IMG/VR virus record: IMGVR_UViG_3300023174_000064
Span: 62,001-126,000 of that record
Source: a virus
Reading direction: 5' to 3' (one strand)
DNA: 64,000 bases
The notes below the pieces were generated by a model. That model searched no databases. It was not told where the DNA came from and saw only the letters and a list, made by a program, of their open reading frames with translations. Made by a program: the position numbers and the translations under genes. Position 1 is the first letter of the stretch. Each line of letters begins with the position of its first letter. Below, piece by piece: positions 1 through 64,000 of the stretch.

Positions 1-372
1 AACGCCTAAAGAATCTGGATGTTGTAATTCTATTTTATTTAACCAAGTACCACCGTAAAGAAATAAAGTAGAATTATCACAACTATTAAGTATTTCTTCA
101 TCTGTACACATAATAAGATCATATTCGGATGCATGATCTATGATATCATTGATTCGTTCTTTATTTGGCGAACAAACAGGTTCGCTGGTTACAATTAAAA
201 CTTTATATGCATTTAAATTTTTAAAAGGAACTTTATATCCTTGAGTGTTTGGAAAACGATATAAAGGAAATTTATTATTACCAAAACGAGCAGTATGTAT
301 TTCTACTGGTCGATCAAAATCCATTAGATCCGAGCCTAACAGATAATCTGCATTAAAAATTGTTGGTTTCAT
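1..372 (-). CDS. N-terminal part of an unrecognised ORF, possibly glycosyltransferase-related (cut by the window edge)
   Basis: An open frame of 124 codons runs from an ATG at 372 to the window edge without a stop. It starts MKPTIFNADYLLGSDLMDF and later has Rossmann-like strands (YKVLIVTSEP, YDLIMCTDEEIL). Its start overlaps the 3' end of the next upstream gene (stop at 353) by 20 nt, so the two are translationally coupled. The neighbours are a GT10-like and a GT-A-like protein, so a sugar-transfer role is plausible from context only. The catalytic part would lie outside the window, and no family was recognised. Confidence 0.75.
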   Translation of the reverse strand, partial: MKPTIFNADYLLGSDLMDFDRPVEIHTARFGNNKFPLYRFPNTQGYKVPFKNLNAYKVLIVTSEPVCSPNKERINDIIDHASEYDLIMCTDEEILNSCDNSTLFLYGGTWLNKIELQHPDSLGV

Positions 373-1231
373 TATTAATCATCTCAAAAAGATCATCGTC
401 TGCTAATTTTAATTTATTAAGAGCTTTGTAATTGTGCTCTATCGCTTTGCTTTTATTTATGTAGGTTTCTTCGTTTAAAGAATCAAATATTTTTTTTTCT
501 TTATCTAATTCTAACCAAATAATTCCTTCTGGATCAAAAATATCAGGAAGTTTTTTAGTTCCACAATATACAGGAATTGTTCCTGTAGCAAAACAGTCTG
601 TTAATTTTTCTGTGTAATAAGAATCGTATATACCATTCTCAACAACTACACTAAACATATAATCCTTTAAACCATCAATTTTAGTGTTCCAAGGATTTCT
701 AGGATCATTTACTGTTCTGCTGGTTCCATGAGCTCCTCCAAATACATCAAAACCACAATCTAATGCTATTCGAGCAATTTGATGCCGATATACGTGGCCT
801 TCTGTTAGTTTTTTGGGAGAGCAAAACATAGAGCATTGTTTTTTCTTGGGATAAACACTCCATTTATCTTTTGGAATCCACGGATAATTGCTACCATTTT
901 GGCAATAAACAAAATTTGGATGTAACTGTAGAAGAGCACTGTCACAAGTAAAAATTTTATTATAATAACTATTAAACAATACTTTATAATTGTTTATTAA
1001 AAAATCATAAACATTTGGAACTATAAATCTAGATTCGCATATCCAACCAAATCTTTTTTCTTTGGGTTTAGAAAAATCTGGATTTATTAACAGACCTAAA
1101 TCTAAATGAACATCACAAATACCTTCAGTGTTTGACCAATCGAACTTATTTGGTTTTATGTTTGAACAAGAAGAATATTGTGGTTCGAATGGTAAAGCAA
1201 TACCTTTTACTTTGTACCGGGACTCTGCCAT
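353..1231 (-). CDS. glycosyltransferase family 10 (fucosyltransferase-like)
   Basis: 292 aa. The C-terminal half carries the GT10 signature: FSVVVENG followed by YYTEKLTDCFATGTIPVYCG and then LPDIFDPEGII, around residues 190-240. This is the nucleotide-sugar binding part of alpha-1,3-fucosyltransferase-type enzymes. The N-terminal half is Cys-rich and not recognised. Transfer of a deoxyhexose to a glycan, either DNA- or capsid-linked or host LPS, is inferred from the family. The acceptor cannot be read from sequence. It overlaps both neighbours (25 nt with the upstream GT, 20 nt with the downstream ORF), giving a three-gene glycosylation module. Confidence 0.85.
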   Translation of the reverse strand: MAESRYKVKGIALPFEPQYSSCSNIKPNKFDWSNTEGICDVHLDLGLLINPDFSKPKEKRFGWICESRFIVPNVYDFLINNYKVLFNSYYNKIFTCDSALLQLHPNFVYCQNGSNYPWIPKDKWSVYPKKKQCSMFCSPKKLTEGHVYRHQIARIALDCGFDVFGGAHGTSRTVNDPRNPWNTKIDGLKDYMFSVVVENGIYDSYYTEKLTDCFATGTIPVYCGTKKLPDIFDPEGIIWLELDKEKKIFDSLNEETYINKSKAIEHNYKALNKLKLADDDLFEMINNETNNF

Positions 1232-1845
1232 GCTATTAAATCCTCACTCATTCCTAATTTTTTAAGTGCTTCTTTTTTAGAATCTACGTCAGCCAATCCC
1301 ATTACTATTACACTAGCATCGTTTTCTTGACCGGGCCAAACACAATATTCTGGTCCTATAAATTTTATTTTAAATCCATCTTTTTGATAAAAAGAATGCA
1401 AAATGCCAATAAGAGCTTCATGATCAAACCATTGACCATTATTTGCCATTTGCCTTGCCATAAATGTCCAATGTTGAAGAAATTCTAATACTTTAGAATT
1501 AAAATCCAAATAAATTGGAGATGCTTTTGCTGCTTGTAATTTATTTGTTGAGCAAGACACAGCTACATCAGTATTACCTACAAACTGGTCAAATACATCT
1601 AATGATTTGCGAACATCAGAATCAATATCTAACCAAACAACTGGTTTTTGTTTTTCTATTAATAATTGGTATATGAACTGAGGCTTACTTAGACAATTTT
1701 TTTGATATGTTCCTAATGATTGTTTTTTTCTAATATCATGAGGAATATTCAATTCTCTTAGTTGTTTTGTAAGACGATGAGAATGGTCACTATAATACGT
1801 TTTATTGTCTATATCACTAAAAAAAGAAATCACTTCGGTTTGCAT
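1207..1845 (-). CDS. GT-A type nucleotide-diphospho-sugar glycosyltransferase
   Basis: 212 aa. It opens with a beta strand (EVISFFSDID) and has a DxD-type metal/nucleotide-sugar motif in VVWLDIDSD (about residues 69-77), followed by residues typical of GT-A folds (WFDHEALIGILH, an acidic/His element near residue 140). The length fits small phage and bacterial GTs such as the nucleotid_trans group. The start codon is the first ATG; the gene sits 2 nt from regA and overlaps the downstream GT10 gene. Substrate and acceptor are unknown. Confidence 0.7.
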   Translation of the reverse strand: MQTEVISFFSDIDNKTYYSDHSHRLTKQLRELNIPHDIRKKQSLGTYQKNCLSKPQFIYQLLIEKQKPVVWLDIDSDVRKSLDVFDQFVGNTDVAVSCSTNKLQAAKASPIYLDFNSKVLEFLQHWTFMARQMANNGQWFDHEALIGILHSFYQKDGFKIKFIGPEYCVWPGQENDASVIVMGLADVDSKKEALKKLGMSEDLIAWQSPGTK

Positions 1846-1847
1846 AA

Positions 1848-2252
1848 TTAAGAGTTTCCTATATGGTATTTAGGCACCAGTTGCCATTCTTTCTTTTCTT
1901 TATGGGGAATAATTTTTAGTTGAGCCAAAGAAATAATTGGTTCTTTGTACTCGTCTGGATCCACAGCTTCTACTAGTCCCCATTCTACCAGAAGCTTTAC
2001 AATCATGTTACGTCGGCCAAGATCGGTATCGTCTATATCTGTTTCTAGTCCGTCTAGATCAAGCATCTCTTTGAAATGCATGATGGCGTATCTGCCGCGT
2101 TTGTGAAGAATATGACAGCTTTGATATAGTTTTTTTTCTTTTTTGGATGACACTCCCATTCGGGTAAGAGTCTCCTTCACCTTGAGAAAATCGTCTTTAG
2201 ATTTTAATTTGATTTCAACTCCAAGGCCATCAAAAATATCTTCGTTTTCCAT
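1848..2252 (-). CDS. regA: RegA translational repressor of early genes
   Basis: 134 aa, close to T4 RegA (122 aa). It retains the diagnostic stretch with SSKKEKKLYQSCHILHK and then YAIMHFKEMLDLDG and DLGRRNMIVKLLVEWGL. RegA binds start regions of many early mRNAs, including the clamp-loader genes, and blocks ribosome binding. As in T4, it lies just downstream of gene 62 in the replication operon. The C-terminal extension (about 12 aa) is not obviously conserved. Confidence 0.96.
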   Translation of the reverse strand: MENEDIFDGLGVEIKLKSKDDFLKVKETLTRMGVSSKKEKKLYQSCHILHKRGRYAIMHFKEMLDLDGLETDIDDTDLGRRNMIVKLLVEWGLVEAVDPDEYKEPIISLAQLKIIPHKEKKEWQLVPKYHIGNS

Positions 2253-2290
2253 TATATTCCGCTTTCATTAAAAAATTCAGTAATACGGAA

Positions 2291-2686
2291 TTATTTAGGA
2301 TTTTTAGTATTTGTGCCGCCTTGATCTAAAATGGAAAAAATTTCATCCCAATCTTCTTGTTTGATCAGGTCTACTACTTGCTTTGCTTTGGTGTGAGAAT
2401 ACCCGTATAAGGTCTTTAAAGCGTCTATACGGTCATTAGACTCGTCCTTGATCCACTTGCTGAACCTCTTACGGGGTCGAACCGATATACGCAGAAAGTC
2501 AAACTGCATCTTCTTGTCTAGGCCAGACAAACGATTCATCTCATTGGATAAAAAGATGGTGTCTGAGAAGTAAGAAAGACCCCGGTTGGTAAGAAATGGA
2601 ATATATTCTCGTTCGCAACCGGGATCTTCATCCATCAAAGAAACCTTGGTTTGATTTATGGAATTTAAAAAGTCAAACGGTTTCAT
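2291..2686 (-). CDS. 62: clamp loader small subunit gp62
   Basis: 131 aa from the ATG at 2686 (MKPFDFLNSINQTK). An upstream ATG at 2707 would add seven residues. I prefer 2686 because it forms a TAATG overlap with the stop of the preceding methyltransferase gene. Recognisable gp62 features are the N-terminal xFLNSIN, a central helical block ending in RKRFSKWIK (T4 has RGKRYGKWAK), and the position after gene 44 and before regA. It forms the gp44/62 clamp loader with four copies of gp44. It is shorter than T4 gp62 (187 aa), as in other aquatic T4-like phages. Confidence 0.85.
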   Translation of the reverse strand: MKPFDFLNSINQTKVSLMDEDPGCEREYIPFLTNRGLSYFSDTIFLSNEMNRLSGLDKKMQFDFLRISVRPRKRFSKWIKDESNDRIDALKTLYGYSHTKAKQVVDLIKQEDWDEIFSILDQGGTNTKNPK

Positions 2687-3246
2687 TAGCTCTTTCTTGC
2701 TGCCCAAGACAATTCACCAAATCCAACAATTTCATTAGGCTTGTTTTGAAAAAATTCATTTACTGCCTGAACAACACCCGGCCAACCAGCCGAATAATCA
2801 TGGCCACAAAAGTATCCTCCAGATTTAACTTTTGGATACCAAAGTTCTAGATCTTTTTTAACCGCCTCATATTCATGTGCAGCATCAATAAAAATACCAT
2901 CTATGCTGTTATCTTCAAATGTCTTAGAGGCTTCTTCTGATGTCATTTGAAGTGGTTTAAATTTACCAGCAACAGGTGCCATGTTTGTGATAAACTCTTG
3001 AAATAACGTGTCATCAATTATTGACTTTTCGTCTTTATGCTCTTCACTTCCTTTCCAAGTATCTACAGCATAAATATTTAAATTTTTATTGTACTTGATT
3101 GCTTCTACTATAAAGTAAGCCAGACTTTTTCCCTTCCAAACTCCTACCTCAACAAACGTTCCGTTTTCAGGAAGAATTTGAGCTAATTCCGAATATAAAA
3201 CAGGGAAAGTAAACCAACCTTCTAATTTTTCGTAAAAATGTTCCAT
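2686..3246 (-). CDS. class I SAM methyltransferase (Methyltransf_24 type)
   Basis: 186 aa with the class I methyltransferase order: motif I in FVEVGVWKGKSLAYF (residues 31-45), the acidic strand-2 region NIYAVDTW, motif IV-like GIFIDAAHEYEAVKKDL, and the post-IV strand KSGGYFCGHDY. Methyltransf_24 proteins methylate small molecules or sugars; the substrate is unknown. The gene is wedged between genes 44 and 62, which are adjacent in T4. It is 5 nt downstream of gp44 and shares a TAATG with gp62. Confidence 0.85.
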   Translation of the reverse strand: MEHFYEKLEGWFTFPVLYSELAQILPENGTFVEVGVWKGKSLAYFIVEAIKYNKNLNIYAVDTWKGSEEHKDEKSIIDDTLFQEFITNMAPVAGKFKPLQMTSEEASKTFEDNSIDGIFIDAAHEYEAVKKDLELWYPKVKSGGYFCGHDYSAGWPGVVQAVNEFFQNKPNEIVGFGELSWAARKS

Positions 3247-3251
3247 TATAT

Positions 3252-4211
3252 TTAATCCTTAAAACTACAATTCATCATAAGTTCCACCATAAACGCACAC
3301 AGATTAATCTCTTGATCTGCCACAAACGCTGTCTTGTACTGATATTCACCAATAATAACCACCGCTTGAGGGATGCTGGCAGGTTCTAGGAATTCGTATA
3401 AACCATCGTAGACCTTTCTAAAGATGTCTTGAGGGCTGTTGTCTAGGTTGTTGGCTATCCACTTACGGATCTCTGTAAAGTTCTTGGTCTTCAAGAACCC
3501 CATGAGTTCCTTGACATTCAGTTCTCCAGCAGTACTAAGAATACCAATATCAATAGTACCAGCAGCAGAGTAACGCTGTAGTTCATTTAGAGTTCGTCTA
3601 AAATCTGGAAAATACTTGACTACAACCTTGGATAGCACCATGTTGTCGTATTCAATACCTTCTTCTTCCAAAATACCTTGACAGCGTTCCAGGAACTGTT
3701 TAGCTAGTTCTGGACGTTCCTTGGTTGGGAAATTAAAGTCAATAACCGTACAACGAGAATGAATTGGTTCAATAATCCGATTCTTGTAGTTACAGGTCAG
3801 AATAAAGCGACAAGTCTTGGCAAACTCCTCAATGGCTCCACGAAGGGCTGGCTGGATACTTTGAGCGTTCGAGTAATCAAACTCGTCTAGGATCACGATC
3901 TTTTGCTTGGCGTCTTCAGACAAAGAAACCGTGCTGGCAAACTGCCTGATCTTGGTTCGCAGAGTATCAATGTTACCGTCTTCTGAACAGTTGATCAGGA
4001 TATAGTCTGCACCCAATTGAGTACAGAGAGCACGAGCAACCGTAGTCTTACCCATACCTGGCTTGCCTGCCAACAGTAGATTAGGACATTCCCCCGATTC
4101 AATAATACTATTAAAAGTATCCTTTAAACTCTTGGGTAGAACACAATCATCGATGATTGCTGGACGATACTTTTCTACCAGCAGACCAACCGCATTGTTT
4201 GATGTTAGCAT
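3252..4211 (-). CDS. 44: clamp loader large subunit gp44 (AAA+ ATPase)
   Basis: 319 aa from the ATG at 4211 (MLTSNNAVGLLVEKYRP). The frame extends 12 codons further upstream, but into the gp45 gene, so 4211 is the likely start. The AAA+ elements are in order: VEKYRP box, Walker A GKPGMGKT (49-56), Walker B VILDEFD, sensor 1 LTCNYKNRI, and the SRC arginine-finger motif (HSRC). It loads the gp45 clamp with gp62. It directly follows gene 45 (1-nt gap), as in T4. Confidence 0.97.
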   Translation of the reverse strand: MLTSNNAVGLLVEKYRPAIIDDCVLPKSLKDTFNSIIESGECPNLLLAGKPGMGKTTVARALCTQLGADYILINCSEDGNIDTLRTKIRQFASTVSLSEDAKQKIVILDEFDYSNAQSIQPALRGAIEEFAKTCRFILTCNYKNRIIEPIHSRCTVIDFNFPTKERPELAKQFLERCQGILEEEGIEYDNMVLSKVVVKYFPDFRRTLNELQRYSAAGTIDIGILSTAGELNVKELMGFLKTKNFTEIRKWIANNLDNSPQDIFRKVYDGLYEFLEPASIPQAVVIIGEYQYKTAFVADQEINLCAFMVELMMNCSFKD

Positions 4212-13528: not shown

Positions 13529-14962
13529 TCAGAGACCGAAACCAGTGTTACCGTGGAGATTATTGACGGCAAAGATACGGTAGTATTGGTTACCACCGAG
13601 AGCGTTGATGTCAGTGTTCTCGGCGAATGGATTGGATACCATGCCGTAACGAGTCTTGAAGCCGATCTTGGGTTGGAAAGTGCTTTGATCGACTGCACGT
13701 ACCATTTGTAACGGAACGTATGGGCAGTAGAACACACCAGCGTCGTATGGGCTTGCACCACGATAGCCGACTAGGCAGAAGTTTGCACCAGCAGCAGCGT
13801 ATGGATCGATATAAACCTTGAACTTGCCGTTTAGAACGCCAGCAAAAGTGTTGCCGGTGTCATCAACCTCTAGTTGAGTTTGTAGAGCAGGAGTTAGGTT
13901 TAGGAATCCACCCATGGCGAGAGCTGAAGCTACGTCGCTTGAGCAAACGATGAAGTTACCCTTACCACGACGAGTTTCCTTGGCGATTTGGTTAGCTTCA
14001 CGTTCGATTTGGAACATGAGACCACGGAAACGTTCTGCACTCCAACGACCATCAGAGTCGGTGTTTAGATCGTAAACACCACCAGTGGTGAGATCGGCTT
14101 GTTGGCAACCAGTCTTGGCAGTGCGGTATAGGGTGTAGATTAGCTCGCGGTTGATTTCGTTGAGAATTTCAGTGCTAAGAATGTTAGCAAGTTCGCTCTC
14201 AGCGTCAAGACCGTGAACAGCCTTTAGATCTTGAGCTAGCTCAGTGCTGTACTCTGCCTTTAGGGCGCGAGTCTTGGCTTCTACAGCTAGACGCTCAATG
14301 CTGAATGCCATTTGGTTGAAGTTTAGTTTGCCACTTTCGCCTAATTCTTCACCAACGTTGGTTAACATACCACGGAAGCTGTTGATATCAAAGCTGCTTT
14401 CGCGGATACCAAAGTTGGCACCTTGAGCAAAACCACCGTTGTTGCTACCGCTAACACCGATAGGGTTGATGCCTTGGTTAGCAGCAGTGGCAGCACCAGC
14501 AGAGGTGTTACCTGAACCACCGAACTTAGCAAAAACTTCTTGGAATAGAGCTTCGCGGCCTACACCAACGCTACCGCTTTCGGTTTGAGACTGATAGCGT
14601 GAACGCATGGCAAAGATTAGACCGGTTGGTGCACTCATTGGTTGCACGCCAGCTAGATCGTAAGCCATTAAGTTTGGCATGCTACGACGAACTAGGCTGA
14701 TTAGAATAGGATCGTAACCTGCGAGGTTAGAATTACCACCTGCAGCTTGTGTTACTCGGAAACCGCCTGCACCCATGGCATTGGCAGGGGCTTCAATAAG
14801 ATATTGCTCACGAAGAGCCTTCTCTTGATTTTCTAGTAGCATAGCAGTACACTTTTTCTTGTACGAATCTGAAATTGAAGGAATAGCCTCGTGTTCTAGT
14901 AGAGGGTTCCATTTTTCTACGAGTGTATCGTAGGGGGTAGTTTCGTTAAAATCCATTGACAT
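13529..14962 (-). CDS. 23: major capsid protein gp23
   Basis: 477 aa, HK97 fold in T4-like phages. The start at 14962 has an AAGGAG box 9 nt upstream. The expected gp21 protease site is visible as LIE (55-57) followed by APANAMG, so about 57 residues would be removed on head maturation, as in T4 (after E65). SLVRRSMPNLMAYDLAGVQPMS and the C-terminal YYRIFAVNNLHG are gp23 hallmarks. Preceded by a TATAAATA late promoter and followed by a strong terminator. Confidence 0.98.
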   Translation of the reverse strand: MSMDFNETTPYDTLVEKWNPLLEHEAIPSISDSYKKKCTAMLLENQEKALREQYLIEAPANAMGAGGFRVTQAAGGNSNLAGYDPILISLVRRSMPNLMAYDLAGVQPMSAPTGLIFAMRSRYQSQTESGSVGVGREALFQEVFAKFGGSGNTSAGAATAANQGINPIGVSGSNNGGFAQGANFGIRESSFDINSFRGMLTNVGEELGESGKLNFNQMAFSIERLAVEAKTRALKAEYSTELAQDLKAVHGLDAESELANILSTEILNEINRELIYTLYRTAKTGCQQADLTTGGVYDLNTDSDGRWSAERFRGLMFQIEREANQIAKETRRGKGNFIVCSSDVASALAMGGFLNLTPALQTQLEVDDTGNTFAGVLNGKFKVYIDPYAAAGANFCLVGYRGASPYDAGVFYCPYVPLQMVRAVDQSTFQPKIGFKTRYGMVSNPFAENTDINALGGNQYYRIFAVNNLHGNTGFGL

Positions 14963-15007: not shown

Positions 15008-16009
15008 TTAGTAAGTCTTAGTTTGACGCGACAGAGCATTTACATATACAGACATGGGGCCTTCAGTGACTGCAGGTGCATTCCATTGCTCTGTAAGTGT
15101 TTCGGTTTGTTGGGCAACTACTGGAGCAGCCTTCAGATAATTTTCTTTGAGAATTAGAAGCTTGTTTTGGAAGTCTTGAGCGTTGCTGAAATCAATGCTC
15201 TCGGCTAGAGAAGCAAGACGTTCAGCGTCTACTTGAGACATATCAGAAACAGTGCTTAGGAAAATAGCACGAGCTTGACCAGCAGTGACTTCTCGGTTGA
15301 GATTCATGTTGGTTTGAATTTGCTCATTGAGAGCAGATTCTAGTTCTTGGTTCTCGTTAAATAGATCTTCAAGAATATCATGCTTCTTTTCTGGAACTTC
15401 AATGTAGTGAGTCTCGAATAGGCTCTTGAGACCACCAATAAAGCTTTCAGAAATTTCGGTACGAATACCGTTTTCTACGGCTAGCTTGTTTTCTTTCATC
15501 CACTCGTCTACAGCATAGTTTAAATACTCGTCTAGACGAGTTGCTAGTTCTTCAGTAACCTTTTGTACTTCTTCTTGAATGATTGAAGCACTTTCACGAA
15601 GAACTTGTTCACGAATCTTGGTGGTGCGCTCGTTGAGAGCAGCTTCAAAGATTACAGCAGTCTTGCTCATGAATTCTTCAGACAGATTTTCACCGTTAAA
15701 TAGTGAACCAAGATGTTCTTGGATTGTGTCTGGAATTTCGTCTTCATGTGCAGCCTCTTGGTCAGGAAGATCTTGACCTGCAGCTGTTGCGTGAGCAGCA
15801 GCCACGTCTCGTGTTTCCTTGGATCGTCTGGCTGCATCACCAGCAAATTGTGCACCGCCTGGACGAAGGCTCATTTGATTGCGTTGAGCACTTCCTTCCA
15901 TCCAACTGGTGTCAAGGGTACCAAGAAATGGTCCCTTACCTGTGGCATCCATTGCACCTTTGCCTGTTGCATCCATTACTACGGGTCGTTGTTGTTGTGT
16001 CTTTTTCAT
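15008..16009 (-). CDS. 22: prohead core scaffold protein gp22
   Basis: 333 aa. The scaffold signature is VDEWMKENKLAVENGIRTEISESFIGGLKSLFETHYIEVP in the centre (residues about 165-205), with long flanking coiled-coil helices. The N-terminus has a short tandem repeat (MDATGKG twice). gp22 forms the prohead core and is degraded by gp21. It sits between the proline-rich insert and gp23, and has its own TATAAATA promoter. Confidence 0.95.
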   Translation of the reverse strand: MKKTQQQRPVVMDATGKGAMDATGKGPFLGTLDTSWMEGSAQRNQMSLRPGGAQFAGDAARRSKETRDVAAAHATAAGQDLPDQEAAHEDEIPDTIQEHLGSLFNGENLSEEFMSKTAVIFEAALNERTTKIREQVLRESASIIQEEVQKVTEELATRLDEYLNYAVDEWMKENKLAVENGIRTEISESFIGGLKSLFETHYIEVPEKKHDILEDLFNENQELESALNEQIQTNMNLNREVTAGQARAIFLSTVSDMSQVDAERLASLAESIDFSNAQDFQNKLLILKENYLKAAPVVAQQTETLTEQWNAPAVTEGPMSVYVNALSRQTKTY

Positions 16010-16078: not shown

Positions 16079-17338
16079 TTAAATCATTCCGTATCGTAGA
16101 TCTTTTTTCATCATCATTAAACGTCTGGCAGCTTCAGTATTCATCTGATCAATATAATTATTTGCCACTTTTCCTGCTAATTTTGCTGTTCCACCAAGAG
16201 CAACACCTGTGGTTTTAGCAAGCGCACCACTTGTTTTGTCGCCCAGCAAATTGGCTGCTATATTTCCTACCACACCGGTAGTAGCGTTCACAGCAATACC
16301 CAGAGGATTTGTTAAATCTAAGATATTTTTATAGTGCTTCATTTGTTCTGCACCTATACCTGACGGATCAAAAATGGCAGCTTGAGCCACTCGACCACTT
16401 CTGATCTTTGCCATAGTTTCTGGAGAAGTTGCAGCCAACATTCTAAAAAAGTTGGTTGTGTCTTCACCAGGAACAGGTTTAGTCATTCTGGAATAAGTTT
16501 CTGCAGCTTTCTTGGGATTTAAAGAAACGTCTAAAGCTTCTGCGGCTGTATCTTTAATTTTTCCAACTACGTCTTTAAATCCTTCGATGTATTTGTTATT
16601 TTGAGTCCACTTGTCAGATTCAATTTTTTTAAATCTTGCTGGATCTTCAGCCTTCATCGCACTAACAGAACCAGAAGGAGTCACGATTCCAGACTCTTGA
16701 TCTGTATCTAAAAGTTTTTCATTTAGAGTAACACTTTCAAGTAAAGACTTTAATGAATTAGGTCTAAATCTGAGAGTTTGTTCAAATATACCACGACTAG
16801 AACGGTTCATTCTAGCCAATCTGGCTGAGTGTCTAGCAGCAGCAAGTTCTTCTGATCGCTTTAATTCATTTTCTTCTGCTCGTTCTCTCATTCTATTTAA
16901 ACGAGCATCTCTTTTTGCTTTTCGTTCTCCTTCCAGTTCCTCTGGAGTTTTTGCTTTTCCGTATCCTTTTACTTTTGGTTTAACAGGAGGTTTTGGAGGT
17001 TCGGGAGTGGGCTCGGGCTTGGGTGGTTCGGGAGTGGGCTCGGGCTTGGGTGGTTCAGGTTCTGGATTAGGAACTAGACCTGGTGGTGGTTCACCGGGAG
17101 CTGGTGGTTGTGGTTCTGGATTAGGAACTAGACCTGGTGGTGGTTCACCGGGAGCTGGTGGTTCAGGTTCTGGATTAGGAACTAGACCTGGTGGTGGCTC
17201 CGGTTCAGAAACTCCTTGTTTATCTGTATTATTATTTTTGTTTTTATCTTTATCTTTACCACCAGCATTACCAGCAGTATCCATTATTGATGGTGGAGTA
17301 ATAACACTTTCTAATAAATTTTTTAATTTGATTTTCAT
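16079..17338 (-). CDS. proline-rich repeat protein between gp21 and gp22, putative internal head protein
   Basis: 419 aa, family not recognised. Residues 1-20 (MKIKLKNLLESVITPP) resemble a gp21-cleavable leader (LLE then S). A proline-rich linker follows, with three 18-aa units (EPEPPAPGEPPPGLVPNP) and two PKPEPTPEP units. A charged helix (ERKAKRDARLNRMRERAEENELKR) comes next, then a second LKSLLESV motif near residue 205, then an Ala/Gly-rich, possibly membrane-active C-terminus (NPLGIAVNATTGVVGNIAANLLG). Its place inside the head operon, and two L-L-E sites, suggest a packaged or core protein processed by gp21. This is inference. Confidence 0.7.
   Translation of the reverse strand: MKIKLKNLLESVITPPSIMDTAGNAGGKDKDKNKNNNTDKQGVSEPEPPPGLVPNPEPEPPAPGEPPPGLVPNPEPQPPAPGEPPPGLVPNPEPEPPKPEPTPEPPKPEPTPEPPKPPVKPKVKGYGKAKTPEELEGERKAKRDARLNRMRERAEENELKRSEELAAARHSARLARMNRSSRGIFEQTLRFRPNSLKSLLESVTLNEKLLDTDQESGIVTPSGSVSAMKAEDPARFKKIESDKWTQNNKYIEGFKDVVGKIKDTAAEALDVSLNPKKAAETYSRMTKPVPGEDTTNFFRMLAATSPETMAKIRSGRVAQAAIFDPSGIGAEQMKHYKNILDLTNPLGIAVNATTGVVGNIAANLLGDKTSGALAKTTGVALGGTAKLAGKVANNYIDQMNTEAARRLMMMKKDLRYGMI
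16998..17205. repeat. tandem coding repeats (2 x 27 bp and about 3 x 54 bp)
   Basis: Two 27-bp units at 16998-17051 encode the PKPEPTPEP repeats. They are followed by about three 54-bp units (period seen from the repeated TCTGGATTAG at 17061, 17115 and 17169) encoding the PPPGLVPNPEPEPPAPGE linker. Near-identity at DNA level indicates recent expansion. Confidence 0.9.
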
Positions 17339-17982
17339 TTTAATTTTCTTAAAAAGTCTTCAAATAATTTTACAGCTTTTTGTTCTAGTTGACGTGCAGA
17401 TACTTTAGAAAGTTCTCGGTGATACTCTTCAATTTGACGTTCAACAAGCATACCATTATCCCAGATCCACTCTTTGCCTTCCATGATACCGTTTACGAAA
17501 GCGTTAGGCGCAGAAGGATCAGCAACAATATCTACAGCGGAAAGCATGAAGTCAGGCTGAACTTCATTGTAACCATTTCTGGCTTTCAGTGAACCCATAC
17601 CACGAGTTGAAACGCCAAGACGAGCACCTTCATTGATCAGATTTTTAACAATCTCACCCATTGGAGTGCTCATAACTTTAGCTTTACCGTACACATCAGA
17701 ACCATCACATTTAAATTCTTTAATAATAATTGCAACACGGTCTAAGTTTACTGTTGGACCTGCTGGATGATTTAGTTCACCAAACGCACGGCTGTTGTTT
17801 ACAAACTCTTTGGTGTAACGATTAACTTCATTTAACAGAATGTGTTTTGGGTACATTCTTTTGTTTCGATTGAGGGTATCGGCTTGCATGAAGGTACCTT
17901 CAATGAAATAATTTTTGCCACCGTCAGCAGCTGCTTCGGTTAAAAACTCTACTTGTTCAACTGTCTCGGTTATTAGTTTCAT
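17335..17982 (-). CDS. 21: prohead core maturation protease gp21
   Basis: 215 aa (T4 212), herpesvirus-assemblin-like serine protease. FIEGTFMQADTLNRNKRMYP starts the domain. The catalytic His is in FGELNHPAGP and the Ser in GVSTRGMGS, with the acidic partner in AVDIVADPSAP. The N-terminal VEFLTEAAA contains an L-x-E self-cleavage site. It cleaves gp23, gp22 and cargo leaders at L/I-x-E. It overlaps the proline-rich gene by 4 nt. Confidence 0.97.
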   Translation of the reverse strand: MKLITETVEQVEFLTEAAADGGKNYFIEGTFMQADTLNRNKRMYPKHILLNEVNRYTKEFVNNSRAFGELNHPAGPTVNLDRVAIIIKEFKCDGSDVYGKAKVMSTPMGEIVKNLINEGARLGVSTRGMGSLKARNGYNEVQPDFMLSAVDIVADPSAPNAFVNGIMEGKEWIWDNGMLVERQIEEYHRELSKVSARQLEQKAVKLFEDFLRKLK

Positions 17983-55834: not shown

Positions 55835-56073
55835 TGCTTGTATTCCTTTCGTTCCTGATCACGCTTCTCGCAAATCAGTTGCCATTCCTTATCATCGTTT
55901 GGAAGATAAGTGGTGGCAGCAACATCAACTTCCACCACAGTGGCTCGCCAACCGTCTGGAAGAACCACAACACTGCCGTGTTTCATTTCTTCGTTCATTC
56001 GTGTAACTTCTTGATTTAAAGAACGATTAGAAATTGTATGATTTGGTCGAACTAGTAAAATCTTACGTGTCAT
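55831..56073 (-). CDS. hypothetical protein
   Basis: 80 aa. The opening TRKILLVRPNHTISNRSLN and then GSVVVLPDGWRATVVEVDV look like a small beta-rich domain. It starts at the last base of the PEP-CTERM-like gene stop (1-nt overlap) and overlaps the next gene by 4 nt. Function unknown. Confidence 0.7.
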   Translation of the reverse strand: MTRKILLVRPNHTISNRSLNQEVTRMNEEMKHGSVVVLPDGWRATVVEVDVAATTYLPNDDKEWQLICEKRDQERKEYKQ

Positions 56074-56510
56074 TACTTTTTCCTTTTTCTAAACAGAGCC
56101 GCAATTCCTGCTGCCACAATTAATGTGAGTGAAGCAGGAGCAGGTACAGCCGCTGTTGTAGTGCCTTCAGAAGGAGTTAGTGGTACGCCCAAACAAAATC
56201 CTTCTACCTGATCAAACGCAACTGAAATACAAAACTGTTGATCAGACATCTGGTATGTTCCAACCAACTCGCCGTTTAGGTACAACTTATAGACCCAAAG
56301 ACCAACAGCTTCTCCGGTAAACATGGTATCGCTGTATGTTGCCAGCGGAACTGTATTACCGGAAATAGAACCACCAAATTCGGTGGCCATTGACAGGGCT
56401 GGCTTAAACTGAGGAGGCTGTGTATACGCTTGTGTGGTATACATTGATCCTTCGTATGCAGCCCTATGTGAGAACTGTCCTTGTCCGTAAAATGTAGATG
56501 TAAAACCCAT
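56073..56510 (-). CDS. protein with a PEP-CTERM-like C-terminal sorting signal
   Basis: 145 aa. The last 25 residues have VPAPASLTLIVAAGIAALF followed by RKRKK: a V-P-x-P motif, a hydrophobic helix and a basic end, as in PEP-CTERM exosortase substrates. The body is beta-rich and Tyr/Gln-rich at the N-terminus (FYGQGQFSHRAAYEGSMYTTQAY). No N-terminal signal peptide is visible, unlike true PEP-CTERM proteins, so export would need another route or an upstream start. It lies directly before tRNA-Leu. Confidence 0.75.
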   Translation of the reverse strand: MGFTSTFYGQGQFSHRAAYEGSMYTTQAYTQPPQFKPALSMATEFGGSISGNTVPLATYSDTMFTGEAVGLWVYKLYLNGELVGTYQMSDQQFCISVAFDQVEGFCLGVPLTPSEGTTTAAVPAPASLTLIVAAGIAALFRKRKK

Positions 56511-56603: not shown

Positions 56604-56608
56604 AAAAG

Positions 56609-56681
56609 TGCCCCCTGTAGGAATTGAACCTACGACCTATAGATTAAAAGTCTACTGCTCTACCAACTGAGCTAAGAGGGC
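56609..56681 (-). tRNA. tRNA-Lys (anticodon TTT)
   Basis: 73-nt cloverleaf: acceptor GCCCTCT/AGGGGGC, anticodon stem GTAGA/TCTAT with loop CTTTTAA (TTT), T arm CGTAGGTTCAATTCCTACA. The first tRNA after the 56702-56729 promoter. Confidence 0.95.
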
Positions 56682-56732: not shown

Positions 56733-57896
56733 TTATTTGTTATATGCTTGCGGATAGTAAGTGGGAAACCATTCTCCCCTTTTTTGTCTTTCACGAACAG
56801 CTTTGAATCCTGCTGGATCACCTTCTAATTCGCCTTCTGGTGTAATATTAAAAGCAAGACCAGCATCACTTTGAAACATTTTTTCCATTTGTTGCCTAGT
56901 TCTATTATCTGGTGGATGTAATAAACCAACCATACTATCTATTGCGGCGGGAGCTGCAGCTGCCATACCACCTACAACCGCACTGCCTACGCCAGACATT
57001 AAAGCTAAAGTATCAGCAGAAATTGCACCCCGTCTTGCACCACTTGGAGGTGTTTGTGGTTTCGTGGGTGTGGATGCGGAAGCTGGTGTTTGTGTTGTAG
57101 TTGGGGTTACTGGTTTTGAAACTTCTATTGTGCCTGCTCTTAATGGTCCACTAGAATAACCTTCTATTGTGCCTGCTCTTAATGGTCCACTAGAATAACC
57201 TTCTATTGTGCCTGCTCTTAATGGTCCAGAAGAAATATTTGCTGTTGCTTTTGTTGTCTGGGGGGCTAACACATGAGGAGAAAGTATAATTTTTTTGGGA
57301 TCTCTTACATTAATTATTTCATGCGGGACAACTTCTCCAATTTTTTTATCATATGCTTTTATAGCGTCTATTCCTCTTTCATCTAAAGCACTTTGTATTC
57401 GTGCTAAATAGTCAGGGTTTTTTCTATCTTTAAAATTATCTGGAATAGATATTCCCAATCGTTCGCCCACTGTTGGTATATTTTCTCCATAACCCATTTC
57501 TATTGGATTTTCTATATTAGCATACGCAGTAATAATTCTACTACCTGGTGCGTATGAATGTGTAGTTTTACTTGTTGGTGGTTTGAAAGGACGAAGATAC
57601 CATGGTTGTTTTATTTCTATACTATTTGGTATTGTTGTCAGATAACGTTCAGCATAAGTTGGACTTGAAGTCCAATATTGTCCGGGACCCCATGTATTAG
57701 TACCAAGATTATTACTTATTCTTCCTGTTTCTGCAAAATCAAAATTTGGTGTAGCAGACGTTCCACGATATAGTGGTTGAGGTAATCCGGTTTTAGGGTC
57801 TATAGCCTTTGTTCCTTTTAAACGGGTTAAAAGATCATTTACATAATTATTAAATGAATTATCAGATTCTGATAAAAATTGAATAAAGCTTTTCAT
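56733..57896 (-). CDS. putative ADP-ribosyltransferase with capsid-targeting-like leader and 13-aa repeats
   Basis: 387 aa from the ATG at 57896; an ATG at 57923 lies upstream of the late promoter. Residues 1-11 MKSFIQFLSES match T4 capsid-targeting leaders (MKTYQEFIAE), with an L-x-E cleavage site. Residues about 40-210 read LYRGTSATPNFDFAETG, WGPGQYWTSSPTYAERYL, AYANIENPIEM, RGIDAIKAYD and HEIINVRDPKKIIL, the pattern of ADP-ribosyltransferase-like domains (R, T-S-S, then N-P). The catalytic Glu was not placed. Three copies of a 13-aa repeat (SSGPLRAGTIEGY) and an Ala/Gly hydrophobic segment follow. By analogy to T4 Alt, it may be injected and modify host proteins. Confidence 0.65.
   Translation of the reverse strand: MKSFIQFLSESDNSFNNYVNDLLTRLKGTKAIDPKTGLPQPLYRGTSATPNFDFAETGRISNNLGTNTWGPGQYWTSSPTYAERYLTTIPNSIEIKQPWYLRPFKPPTSKTTHSYAPGSRIITAYANIENPIEMGYGENIPTVGERLGISIPDNFKDRKNPDYLARIQSALDERGIDAIKAYDKKIGEVVPHEIINVRDPKKIILSPHVLAPQTTKATANISSGPLRAGTIEGYSSGPLRAGTIEGYSSGPLRAGTIEVSKPVTPTTTQTPASASTPTKPQTPPSGARRGAISADTLALMSGVGSAVVGGMAAAAPAAIDSMVGLLHPPDNRTRQQMEKMFQSDAGLAFNITPEGELEGDPAGFKAVRERQKRGEWFPTYYPQAYNK
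57123..57228. repeat. 39-bp tandem repeat, about 2.7 copies
   Basis: Identical 39-bp units start at 57123, 57162 and 57201 (TTCTATTGTGCCTGCTCTTA and on) and encode the 13-aa SSGPLRAGTIEGY unit in phase. Perfect identity implies recent expansion or slippage. Confidence 0.95.
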
Positions 57897-57901
57897 ACTA
57901 A

Positions 57902-57909
57902 TATTTATA
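57902..57909 (-). promoter_or_regulatory. late promoter (TATAAATA) of the ADP-ribosyltransferase-like gene
   Basis: Perfect minus-strand TATAAATA whose last base is 6 nt from the ATG at 57896, immediately after the T run of the terminator at 57911-57942. The mRNA would start at or next to the ATG. Confidence 0.8.
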
Positions 57910-57910
57910 A

Positions 57911-57942
57911 TAAAAAACCTCACTTTTACGTGAGGTTTTTTA
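57911..57942. terminator. strong bidirectional terminator
   Basis: AAAAAACCTCAC-TTTTAC-GTGAGGTTTTTT, a 6-bp GC-containing stem extended by A/T pairs, with U runs on both strands. It ends transcription from the 58038-58199 gene unit before the late promoter. Confidence 0.93.
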
Positions 57943-60630: not shown

Positions 60631-61251
60631 ATGAAATCATTTTTACAACACCTTCAAGAACGTTCTTTATTGGCTCCCATGATGTTGTCTGCTGCAATTG
60701 GTGCAGGAACTCCTCCAGAAGAACCACCACCAACAACCACTACCACTACGACAACAAAACCCACAGAACCAAAAAAACCAAAAACAGTTACTACACAACA
60801 GTACGCAACAGATAATGCAGCAAAAAATGGTATTTTGCAATCTGAAGATTTAACTCTTGTTGGAAATTTACAAAATCCAACACCATGGAATGATAAATTT
60901 GGAGAAAAGCCGTGGTATTTTGGTAAAGCTTATTTAAATCCACAAGCAGCAAGTGCATTTAAAAGAATGGATGACGATTACTATAAAGAAACCGGAAAAC
61001 GTATAGGCATTAATAGTGCTTATAGAAGCCGACAACAGCAAGCAATGTTTGGTGGAAAATATGATGTTGCTGCTCAACCTGGGAAGTCTAGACACGGGCT
61101 AGGATTAGCGTTAGATGTTCAACCAGGAACTCCAGAATTTAATTGGATGAAATCACGAGGTGGCAATTACGGTTGGAAATGGATGAATATTAAGAATGAT
61201 GCTTGCCACTTTGGATACTGTGGAAACATGGAAGTTCCAGATAAAGATTAA
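60631..61251 (+). CDS. VanY-like D,D-carboxypeptidase (M15B) with capsid-targeting-like leader
   Basis: 206 aa. Residues 1-10 MKSFLQHLQE match the L-x-E leader. A Thr/Pro-rich linker (TTTTTTTTKPTEPKKPK) is followed by the M15B core: GINSAYRSRQQQAMF, then SRHGLGLALDVQPG (H..D) and DACHFGY (second His), giving the zinc ligands H, D and H. It cleaves peptidoglycan stem peptides, either for lysis or for entry if carried in the head. No signal peptide, but a hydrophobic stretch APMMLSAAIGAG lies at residues 14-25. Confidence 0.88.
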   Translation: MKSFLQHLQERSLLAPMMLSAAIGAGTPPEEPPPTTTTTTTTKPTEPKKPKTVTTQQYATDNAAKNGILQSEDLTLVGNLQNPTPWNDKFGEKPWYFGKAYLNPQAASAFKRMDDDYYKETGKRIGINSAYRSRQQQAMFGGKYDVAAQPGKSRHGLGLALDVQPGTPEFNWMKSRGGNYGWKWMNIKNDACHFGYCGNMEVPDKD

Positions 61252-63429: not shown

Positions 63430-64000
63430 TTATAAACTGAGTCGTTGATCTTGTTTGGATCTGAGATATTCTGTAACTTTATCTAGGTATCCTAGATTGC
63501 GTAACTCTTTGAACACCAAGTTCTCCACCGAGAACTCGCCACCTTGTTTCAGTGCAGCTGCACGCATCTCACGGAATTTAGTTTTTAATGCTTCAAACGC
63601 TTCATCTTCCGCACTGGTACTGATTAGCGTATCAATCTTTTCCACGTACTGTTCAACTTTACGTTTGATGCCCGGATCTTTCAGATTGACTTCTTTCTTT
63701 ACCGGTTGAACCAACCACTTATCATTCTTGACACTGTACACGCCTTGATCTTTGGTGTACGCGGTATCTTTGTCTTGAGCGTACAGTTCAACGTCGTGTC
63801 CGTAAATTTTAATATCGTGGACGAGCCCCCATAGTTGTTTCTTGCCACGCAGGTACTCGTCAAGTAGTCCTTCGCATTCTGGAATCTTATCCATGTCAAC
63901 CACAACGTGCAGATCAATGTCTGAATACGGTGTGTAGTTGTAATTGGCGTTACCACCAACTAAAATAATGTCAGTGATTGCCGCAGGAGGAATCTTGGCG
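63430..64000 (-). CDS. nucleotidyltransferase (pol beta-like), 5' part beyond the window
   Basis: At least 190 codons, with the frame open past 64000. The upstream part of the frame reads TDIILVGGNANYNYTPYSDIDLHVVVDMDK: the GG-x(n)-D-I-D motif of minimal nucleotidyltransferases. ELYAQDKDTAYTKDQGVYSV continues the domain, and KKEVNLKDPGIKRKVEQYVEKI to the C-terminus is helical. An internal ATG at 63903 gives a misleadingly short ORF. The substrate is unknown (nucleotide transfer to RNA, antibiotic or protein are options). Confidence 0.8.
   Translation of the reverse strand, partial: AKIPPAAITDIILVGGNANYNYTPYSDIDLHVVVDMDKIPECEGLLDEYLRGKKQLWGLVHDIKIYGHDVELYAQDKDTAYTKDQGVYSVKNDKWLVQPVKKEVNLKDPGIKRKVEQYVEKIDTLISTSAEDEAFEALKTKFREMRAAALKQGGEFSVENLVFKELRNLGYLDKVTEYLRSKQDQRLSL

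What the first reader, a model, noticed from the sequence alone, without database searches (positions are those of the whole stretch)
56733..57909. Alt-like ADP-ribosyltransferase with packaging leader and leaderless late mRNA
It combines a capsid-targeting-like start, an R-G-T / T-S-S ADP-ribosyltransferase-like domain, 39-bp repeats and a hydrophobic C-terminal part. The TATAAATA box ends 6 nt from the ATG, so mRNA would start at the ATG. T4 Alt is packaged and injected to modify RNA polymerase; here a domain with no visible Alt similarity would do a similar job.
Basis: partly seen in the sequence, partly recalled or inferred. Interest (0 to 1): 0.8.

Follow-up and report, generated by a model that had tools for sequence, protein, structure and literature searches.

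The report
Predicted capsid-packaged ADP-ribosyltransferase in T4-like phage
An uncultured T4-like phage carries an inserted gene for a probable ADP-ribosyltransferase that starts with the ten-residue tag such phages use to pack proteins into their heads, so the enzyme is probably injected into the host with the DNA; neither packaging nor enzyme activity has been shown.

Summary
The 387-aa gene (56733-57896, minus) starts MKSFIQFLSE, contains an ADP-ribosyltransferase-like domain and 39-bp repeats, and has TATAAATA ending 5 nt before its ATG. The domain belongs, remotely, to ART-PolyVal (Pfam PF18760, E 1.3e-4, below the curated cut-off; hhalign P 4.7e-6; low-confidence model whose viral structural matches are mostly polyvalent ARTs). 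It is not an Alt-family R-S-E enzyme. The leader matches the T4 internal-protein capsid-targeting sequence in register, including L/I-x-E at residues 8-10. Seven further proteins of this genome carry it, with synonymous codon changes, and the genome encodes gp21 protease and gp22 scaffold. Relatives show an exact empty site: the gene sits between a conserved terminator and a tRNA promoter. Another relative has a different leader protein with the same repeats there. Late boxes ending 5-6 nt before an ATG are over-represented (12 of 79; about 0.9 expected), rare in T4, and concentrated on leader genes, supporting leaderless late mRNAs. Best reading: a swappable late cassette loading an ART into the head, like Alt in delivery but from another ART branch. 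Packaging, cleavage, catalysis and target are untested; RNA polymerase as target has no support.

The parts
56733..57896 (-). ART gene, 387 aa (P0001)
   Evidence: ORF and translation
57867..57896 (-). codons 1-10, MKSFIQFLSE: capsid-targeting-like leader with L-S-E cleavage motif at residues 8-10
   Evidence: matches T4 IPII/IPIII MKTYQEFIAE in register; seven more genes in the record; CTS rules in PMC9026906
57902..57909 (-). T4-type late promoter box TATAAATA, 5 nt before the ATG
   Evidence: sequence; spacing class over-represented
57911..57942 (.). 13-pair stem-loop with U tract on both strands, terminator shared with relatives that lack the ART gene
57282..57806 (-). ADP-ribosyltransferase domain, residues 31-205
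   Evidence: PF18760 E 1.3e-4, hhalign P 4.7e-6, fold searches
57765..57767 (-). R44, strand-1 position (H or T in homologues)
   Evidence: alignments A4, A5
57675..57677 (-). Y74, strand-2 aromatic (W in the aligned subfamily)
   Evidence: alignment A5
57318..57320 (-). E193, candidate third catalytic residue at the start of the last strand; not established
   Evidence: alignment A5 and model strands
57122..57233 (-). three tandem copies of SSGPLRAGTI-type unit (39-bp repeat)
   Evidence: same repeats in L026 at the same locus
56922..57029 (-). Gly/Ala-rich hydrophobic stretch, residues 290-325
56769..56900 (-). C-terminal module, residues 333-376, shared with two other leader proteins
   Evidence: phmmer E 3.6e-5 to the 190-aa leader protein at record 130874-131446; 355-aa protein in L146
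56700..56729 (-). sigma-70-like promoter of the tRNA-Lys/Leu genes, downstream border of the cassette
56608..56681 (-). tRNA-Lys
60631..61251 (+). second leader protein: MKSFLQHLQE plus VanY/M15 peptidase domain, CTAAATA box 5 nt before ATG
63430..64000 (-). part in the window of a third leader protein (MKSFRNILRE plus NTP_transf_2 domain; whole gene L008:430-1149, runs past the window end)
17335..17982 (-). gp21 head maturation protease
   Evidence: phrog_207 E 1.5e-79
15008..16009 (-). gp22 head scaffold, 15 L/I-x-E sites
   Evidence: phrog_237 E 1.1e-69
13529..14962 (-). gp23 major capsid protein
   Evidence: phrog_138, 57% to Synechococcus myophages

Best explanation
An ART-PolyVal-type ADP-ribosyltransferase made as a T4-type internal head protein. 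Late in infection the phage's gp55-type late polymerase would start at or within a nucleotide or so of the ATG and give a leaderless mRNA. The N-terminal ten residues would dock the protein on the gp22 scaffold core, and gp21 would cut after Glu10. The mature enzyme would stay with the DNA and be ejected into the next host, where it would modify a host molecule with ADP-ribose early in infection. The gene is a late cassette inserted between a terminator and a tRNA promoter, and relatives carry nothing or a different leader protein there. Shown by sequence: ORF, leader identity and register, presence of gp21 and gp22, ART homology, empty site, box spacing statistics. Inferred: packaging, cleavage, leaderless translation, enzymatic activity, host target.
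For: ART domain: PF18760 E 1.3e-4 over profile 3-128 of 140; all 13 members of A5 hit the same family; hhalign 86%, P 4.7e-6; top of 2,733 decoys with two local profiles; 23 viral structural matches at E <= 1e-3, mostly polyvalent or ART-PolyVal proteins; PDB top list holds RES, MbcT, PARP4 and tankyrase ART folds, none significant. Leader: M1 K2 S/T3 F/Y4 F7 L/I8 E10 as in T4 IPII/IPIII; T4 work puts targeting at residues 4 and 7 and processing at 8 and 10, with gp21 cutting after L/I-x-E (PMC9026906); eight proteins in the record share it with differing synonymous codons; gp21 and gp22 present, gp22 dense in L/I-x-E. Cassette: L014, L060, L018 have 186-187 bp where the window has 1356 bp; L026 has a different leader protein with the same repeats there. 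Leaderless: 12 of 79 boxes at 5-6 nt from an ATG against 4 of 368 control words; leader genes 8/23 vs 13/1073 others in relatives, 3/8 vs 7/167 here. T4 internal-protein genes also flank its tRNA cluster.
Against: The Pfam hit is below the curated cut-off (23 vs 31 bits). The structure model is weak (pLDDT 52, pTM 0.46) and partly shaped by the ART homologues in its alignment; without them the prediction failed. R44 replaces the family's H and the third catalytic residue is unresolved, so an inactive ART is possible. No close homologue in phages, viral contigs or genomes, so catalytic conservation in near relatives cannot be tested. Homologues of one leader protein (the nucleotidyltransferase) in Synechococcus phages lack the MKSF start. 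No virion proteome exists for this phage.
Confidence: 0.6

Rival explanations
1. The ART-like domain is catalytically dead; the protein is a core or filler head protein whose leader, repeats and C-terminal module matter and whose ART domain is a relic or a binding fold.
For: R44 in place of H, no conserved third acidic residue; the L026 protein at the same locus keeps leader and repeats but has no ART domain; repeats and C-terminal module occur in other leader proteins.
Against: A complete ART-sized domain with Y74, G45-T46 and an intact frame is retained; the strand-1 residue also varies (H or T) among polyvalent ARTs.
Confidence: 0.17
2. An ART effector made late but acting in the producing cell (for example at lysis or against a competing phage), never packaged; the leader has another role.
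For: No virion data; the same leader is on a VanY/M15 peptidase and other late proteins; cyanophage homologues of one leader protein lack the leader.
Against: Exact CTS register and L/I-x-E motif on eight different proteins, with gp21 and gp22 present; the domain resembles virion-borne polyvalent ARTs (PMC5512222).
Confidence: 0.13
3. An Alt-family (R-S-E) ART, modifying RNA polymerase.
For: R44 in YRGT and T-S-S after an aromatic residue resemble the R and S-T-S of Alt; packaging would parallel Alt.
Against: Only PF18760 is hit among all Pfam families up to E 10; no significant similarity to T4 Alt; T-S-S aligns with the T-T/S-D-P of ART-PolyVal.
Confidence: 0.05
4. The conserved MKSF start reflects translation initiation on leaderless mRNAs, not protein targeting.
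For: Leader genes are enriched for boxes abutting the ATG.
Against: Serine, leucine and glutamine codons vary synonymously while the residues stay; leader genes inside the operon without a box keep the peptide.
Confidence: 0.05

Closest known systems
ART-PolyVal (PF18760, Tox-ART-HYD2 clade) domains of phage polyvalent proteins
   Same: Domain homology over nearly the whole profile; predicted to be virion-borne and injected (PMC5512222, PMC9503650)
   Different: Single ART domain on a T4-type capsid-targeting leader rather than in a large multidomain protein; R for H in strand 1; sub-threshold score
T4 Alt
   Same: ART enzyme in a T4-like phage, predicted here to be packed in the head, processed by gp21 and injected as Alt is
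   Different: Other ART branch (Alt is R-S-E), 682 aa with a different N-terminus (MELITELFDE), no detectable homology
T4 internal proteins IPI, IPII, IPIII
   Same: Leader in register (IPII, IPIII), gp21 motif, variable mature part, genes beside the tRNA cluster
   Different: T4 IPs are small, IPI being a restriction inhibitor; here the cargo is an enzyme-like domain, and the T4 ipII and ipIII genes have a purine-rich AAAGGA upstream of the start instead of a box at the ATG
PeSL promoter-terminator cassettes of T4-like phages
   Same: Stem-loop terminator plus promoter bordering a shuffled gene (described second-hand in PMC4503421)
   Different: Late, not early, promoter, placed directly at the ATG, tied to leader-bearing genes

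Membership tests
ART-PolyVal (PF18760) | Profile match above the curated cut-off (31.2 bits) | tested here: not met
   23.1 bits, E 1.3e-4
ART-PolyVal (PF18760) | Homology over the domain to bona fide members | tested here: met
   hhalign P 4.7e-6 with A3, first 100 residues aligned; profile positions 3-128 of 140
ART-PolyVal (PF18760) | H-Y-D active site | tested here: inconclusive
   R44 at H, Y74 present, third residue (E188, E193 or D199) unresolved; H is not invariant in homologues (T in several)
ART-PolyVal (PF18760) | ART fold | tested here: inconclusive
   Low-confidence model; viral library matches mostly polyvalent ARTs, PDB none significant
Alt/VIP2 (R-S-E) ARTs | Sequence similarity to Alt or R-S-E families | tested here: not met
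   No Pfam R-S-E hit at E <= 10, no hit to T4 Alt
T4-type internal (CTS) head proteins | N-terminal 10-residue CTS with aromatic/hydrophobic 4 and 7 and L/I-x-E at 8-10 | tested here: met
   MKSFIQFLSE vs MKTYQEFIAE
T4-type internal (CTS) head proteins | gp21 and gp22 in the same genome | tested here: met
T4-type internal (CTS) head proteins | Present in virions, cleaved after residue 10, ejected | not testable with these tools
   needs virions
Leaderless late transcripts | mRNA 5' end at the A of ATG | not testable with these tools
   predicted from box spacing only (T4 box about one turn upstream of the start, PMC2988020)
Polyvalent proteins | Two or more catalytic domains in one large protein | tested here: not met
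   387 aa, one domain

The most novel reading that the evidence does not exclude
A clade of uncultured T4-like phages uses a plug-in delivery system: late promoters placed directly at the ATG drive leaderless mRNAs for proteins whose first ten codons are a capsid-targeting tag, so that any effector inserted behind the tag (ART, nucleotidyltransferase, peptidase, unknown domains) becomes a head-packaged, injected protein, with repeats and C-terminal modules exchanged among cassettes.
Probability: 0.4. Interest if true: 0.72.

Novelty: new variant of a known kind. Interest (0 to 1): 0.57.

Why it matters
If right, packed-and-injected host-modifying ARTs arose in T4-like phages from two ART branches, not only Alt, and the T4 capsid-targeting tag marks the injected proteins of uncultured relatives, making their cargo findable by sequence alone. 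The predicted leaderless late mRNAs would be a mode that is rare among T4's own consensus late boxes, and it is directly testable by 5'-end mapping.

Tried and rejected
Close homologues of the whole protein: none in viral contigs, phages, genomes, PDB, PHROGs or NCBIfam. DNA pattern for GPGQYWT found only unrelated proteins. PF18760 over 50 related viral records: 0 hits, but the tool's first look also misses the window's own gene, so it says nothing on distribution. Single-sequence structure prediction failed. First large ART alignment (A4) misaligned the C-terminal third; trimming fixed it. The idea that the repeat peptide is a capsid-cement arm rests on one annotation and was not pursued. 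Considered and rejected: Sec signal peptide (no hydrophobic segment after the leader in the ART or nucleotidyltransferase), GTG start at 57923 (upstream of the promoter box, inside the terminator).

Full report
Setting. The window is bases 62001-126000 of a 146,037-bp IMG/VR record. Its major capsid protein is 57% identical to those of Synechococcus myophages, and portal, head protease gp21, scaffold gp22 and gp23 are in order, so it is a T4-like phage. The host is unknown.

Observation. The gene is 387 codons on the minus strand, 57896 to 56733. TATAAATA lies at 57909-57902, then TTAGT, then ATG. A 13-pair hairpin with U tract (57911-57942) lies just upstream. The 39-bp repeat has 2.7 perfect copies.

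ART domain. Pfam gives one family up to E 10: ART-PolyVal, 19.4 bits for the whole protein and 23.1 bits (E 1.3e-4) for residues 31-205, below the curated 31.2 bits. A phage protein with a lysozyme-like domain plus ART (MW202697; domains read by eye) and 53 further IMG/VR loci gave members for comparison. Against four of them hhalign gives 86%, P 4.7e-6; two local profiles rank the protein above 2,733 decoys, though with modest scores. With a 13-row alignment AlphaFold2 reached only pLDDT 52, pTM 0.46, with strand order b-b-a-b-b-a-b-b. Foldseek finds 23 viral models at E <= 1e-3, mostly polyvalent or named ART-PolyVal proteins; in PDB nothing passes E 1e-3, but RES, MbcT, PARP4 and tankyrase domains head the list beside a cyanophage A4 ejectosome chain at E 0.015. 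The model is shaped by its homologues, so this is support, not proof.

Active site. The published polyvalent ARTs have H-Y-D, Alt has R-S-E (PMC5512222). Here R44 sits at the H position (T in several homologues), Y74 at the aromatic of strand 2, and T76-S77-S78-P79 at the family's T-T/S-D-P. E193, E188 or D199 may be the third residue; the aligned subfamily keeps no acidic residue there.

Leader. T4 IPII and IPIII start MKTYQEFIAE. In IPIII residues 4 and 7 govern targeting, 8 and 10 processing, and gp21 cuts after L/I-x-E (PMC9026906). MKSFIQFLSE fits in register. Seven more genes of the record start MKSF with L or I at 8 and E at 10: a VanY/M15 peptidase, a nucleotidyltransferase and five of unknown function, most in a cluster at record 125430-131980. 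Codons for S3, L5, Q6 and L/I8 vary synonymously and genes without their own box keep the peptide, so selection acts on the peptide. In T4 the internal proteins are a highly diverse set with only a conserved CTS (PMC3012670), and there too ip genes flank the tRNA cluster.

Cassette. Fifty-one relatives were found through the neighbouring IMPDH-like gene. In L014, L060 and L018 the 53-aa gene and tRNA-Lys are separated by 186-187 bp with the same terminator; in the window by 1356 bp. The insertion runs from just after the terminator to the tRNA promoter and brings its own late box. L026 has another leader protein there, MKRFIEFLQES, with the same SSGPLRAGTI repeats but no ART domain. The C-terminal module (GELxGDPAGF) recurs in the 190-aa leader protein of this record (phmmer E 3.6e-5) and in a 355-aa leader protein of another phage.

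Late promoter spacing. T4 late boxes lie about one helical turn upstream of the start site (PMC2988020), so a box ending 5-6 nt before ATG predicts initiation at the ATG. Twelve of 79 boxes (NATAAATA or CTAAATA) in this record end 5-6 nt before an ATG of a frame of at least 50 codons, against 4 of 368 control words (Poisson P 1.5e-10). In T4 one such TATAAATA was found and most lie further from the ATG, many with a Shine-Dalgarno sequence between. Leader genes carry this spacing in 3/8 cases here and 8/23 in relatives, other genes in 7/167 and 13/1073 (Fisher 0.0065 and 1.7e-9); relatedness inflates the second figure. No 5' end has been mapped.

Conclusion. Most likely a late, swappable cassette that loads an ART-PolyVal-type enzyme into the head through a T4-type targeting tag. 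It would work like Alt in delivery; it is not a member of the Alt family, and membership in ART-PolyVal is probable but sub-threshold. The target is unknown. Packaging, cleavage, leaderless translation and catalysis are inferences.

Noticed in passing
L008:4550-6980 (record 129550-131980): Run of leader-bearing genes (MKSFL...) behind a late box ending 6 nt before the first ATG; functions unknown, likely the phage's internal-protein locus.
   Followed up: partly
L148-L151, L153: The repeat peptide SGPLRAGTI also occurs at the N-terminus of about 150-aa phage proteins whose relative in phage DSL-LC04 is annotated as a cement protein; a shared capsid-binding peptide is possible.
   Followed up: partly
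L018:1228-1887, L026:3295-3954: PAP2 phosphatase gene inserted near the same locus, again with a CTAAATA/ATAAATA box directly at the ATG.
   Followed up: no
window 56073-56510: 145-aa protein ends VPAPASLTLIVAAGIAALFRKRKK, resembling a PEP-CTERM sorting tail; unusual for a phage protein. Read by eye only.
   Followed up: no
record 126979 and 130845 (L008): Second conserved start, MDPIT..L.E, on two proteins in the leader cluster, with SD-type leaders 17-18 nt after a late box; perhaps another head-protein tag.
   Followed up: no
record 1-4000 and 132500-146037: GC about 55% against about 30-45% elsewhere, short odd ORFs, and no phage match for 7.5 kb of the right end: chimeric assembly or a foreign region.
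   Followed up: partly
L008:430-1149 versus L214-L216: Nucleotidyltransferase carries the MKSF leader here but its Synechococcus phage homologues start without it, as if the tag had been added to an existing protein.
   Followed up: partly
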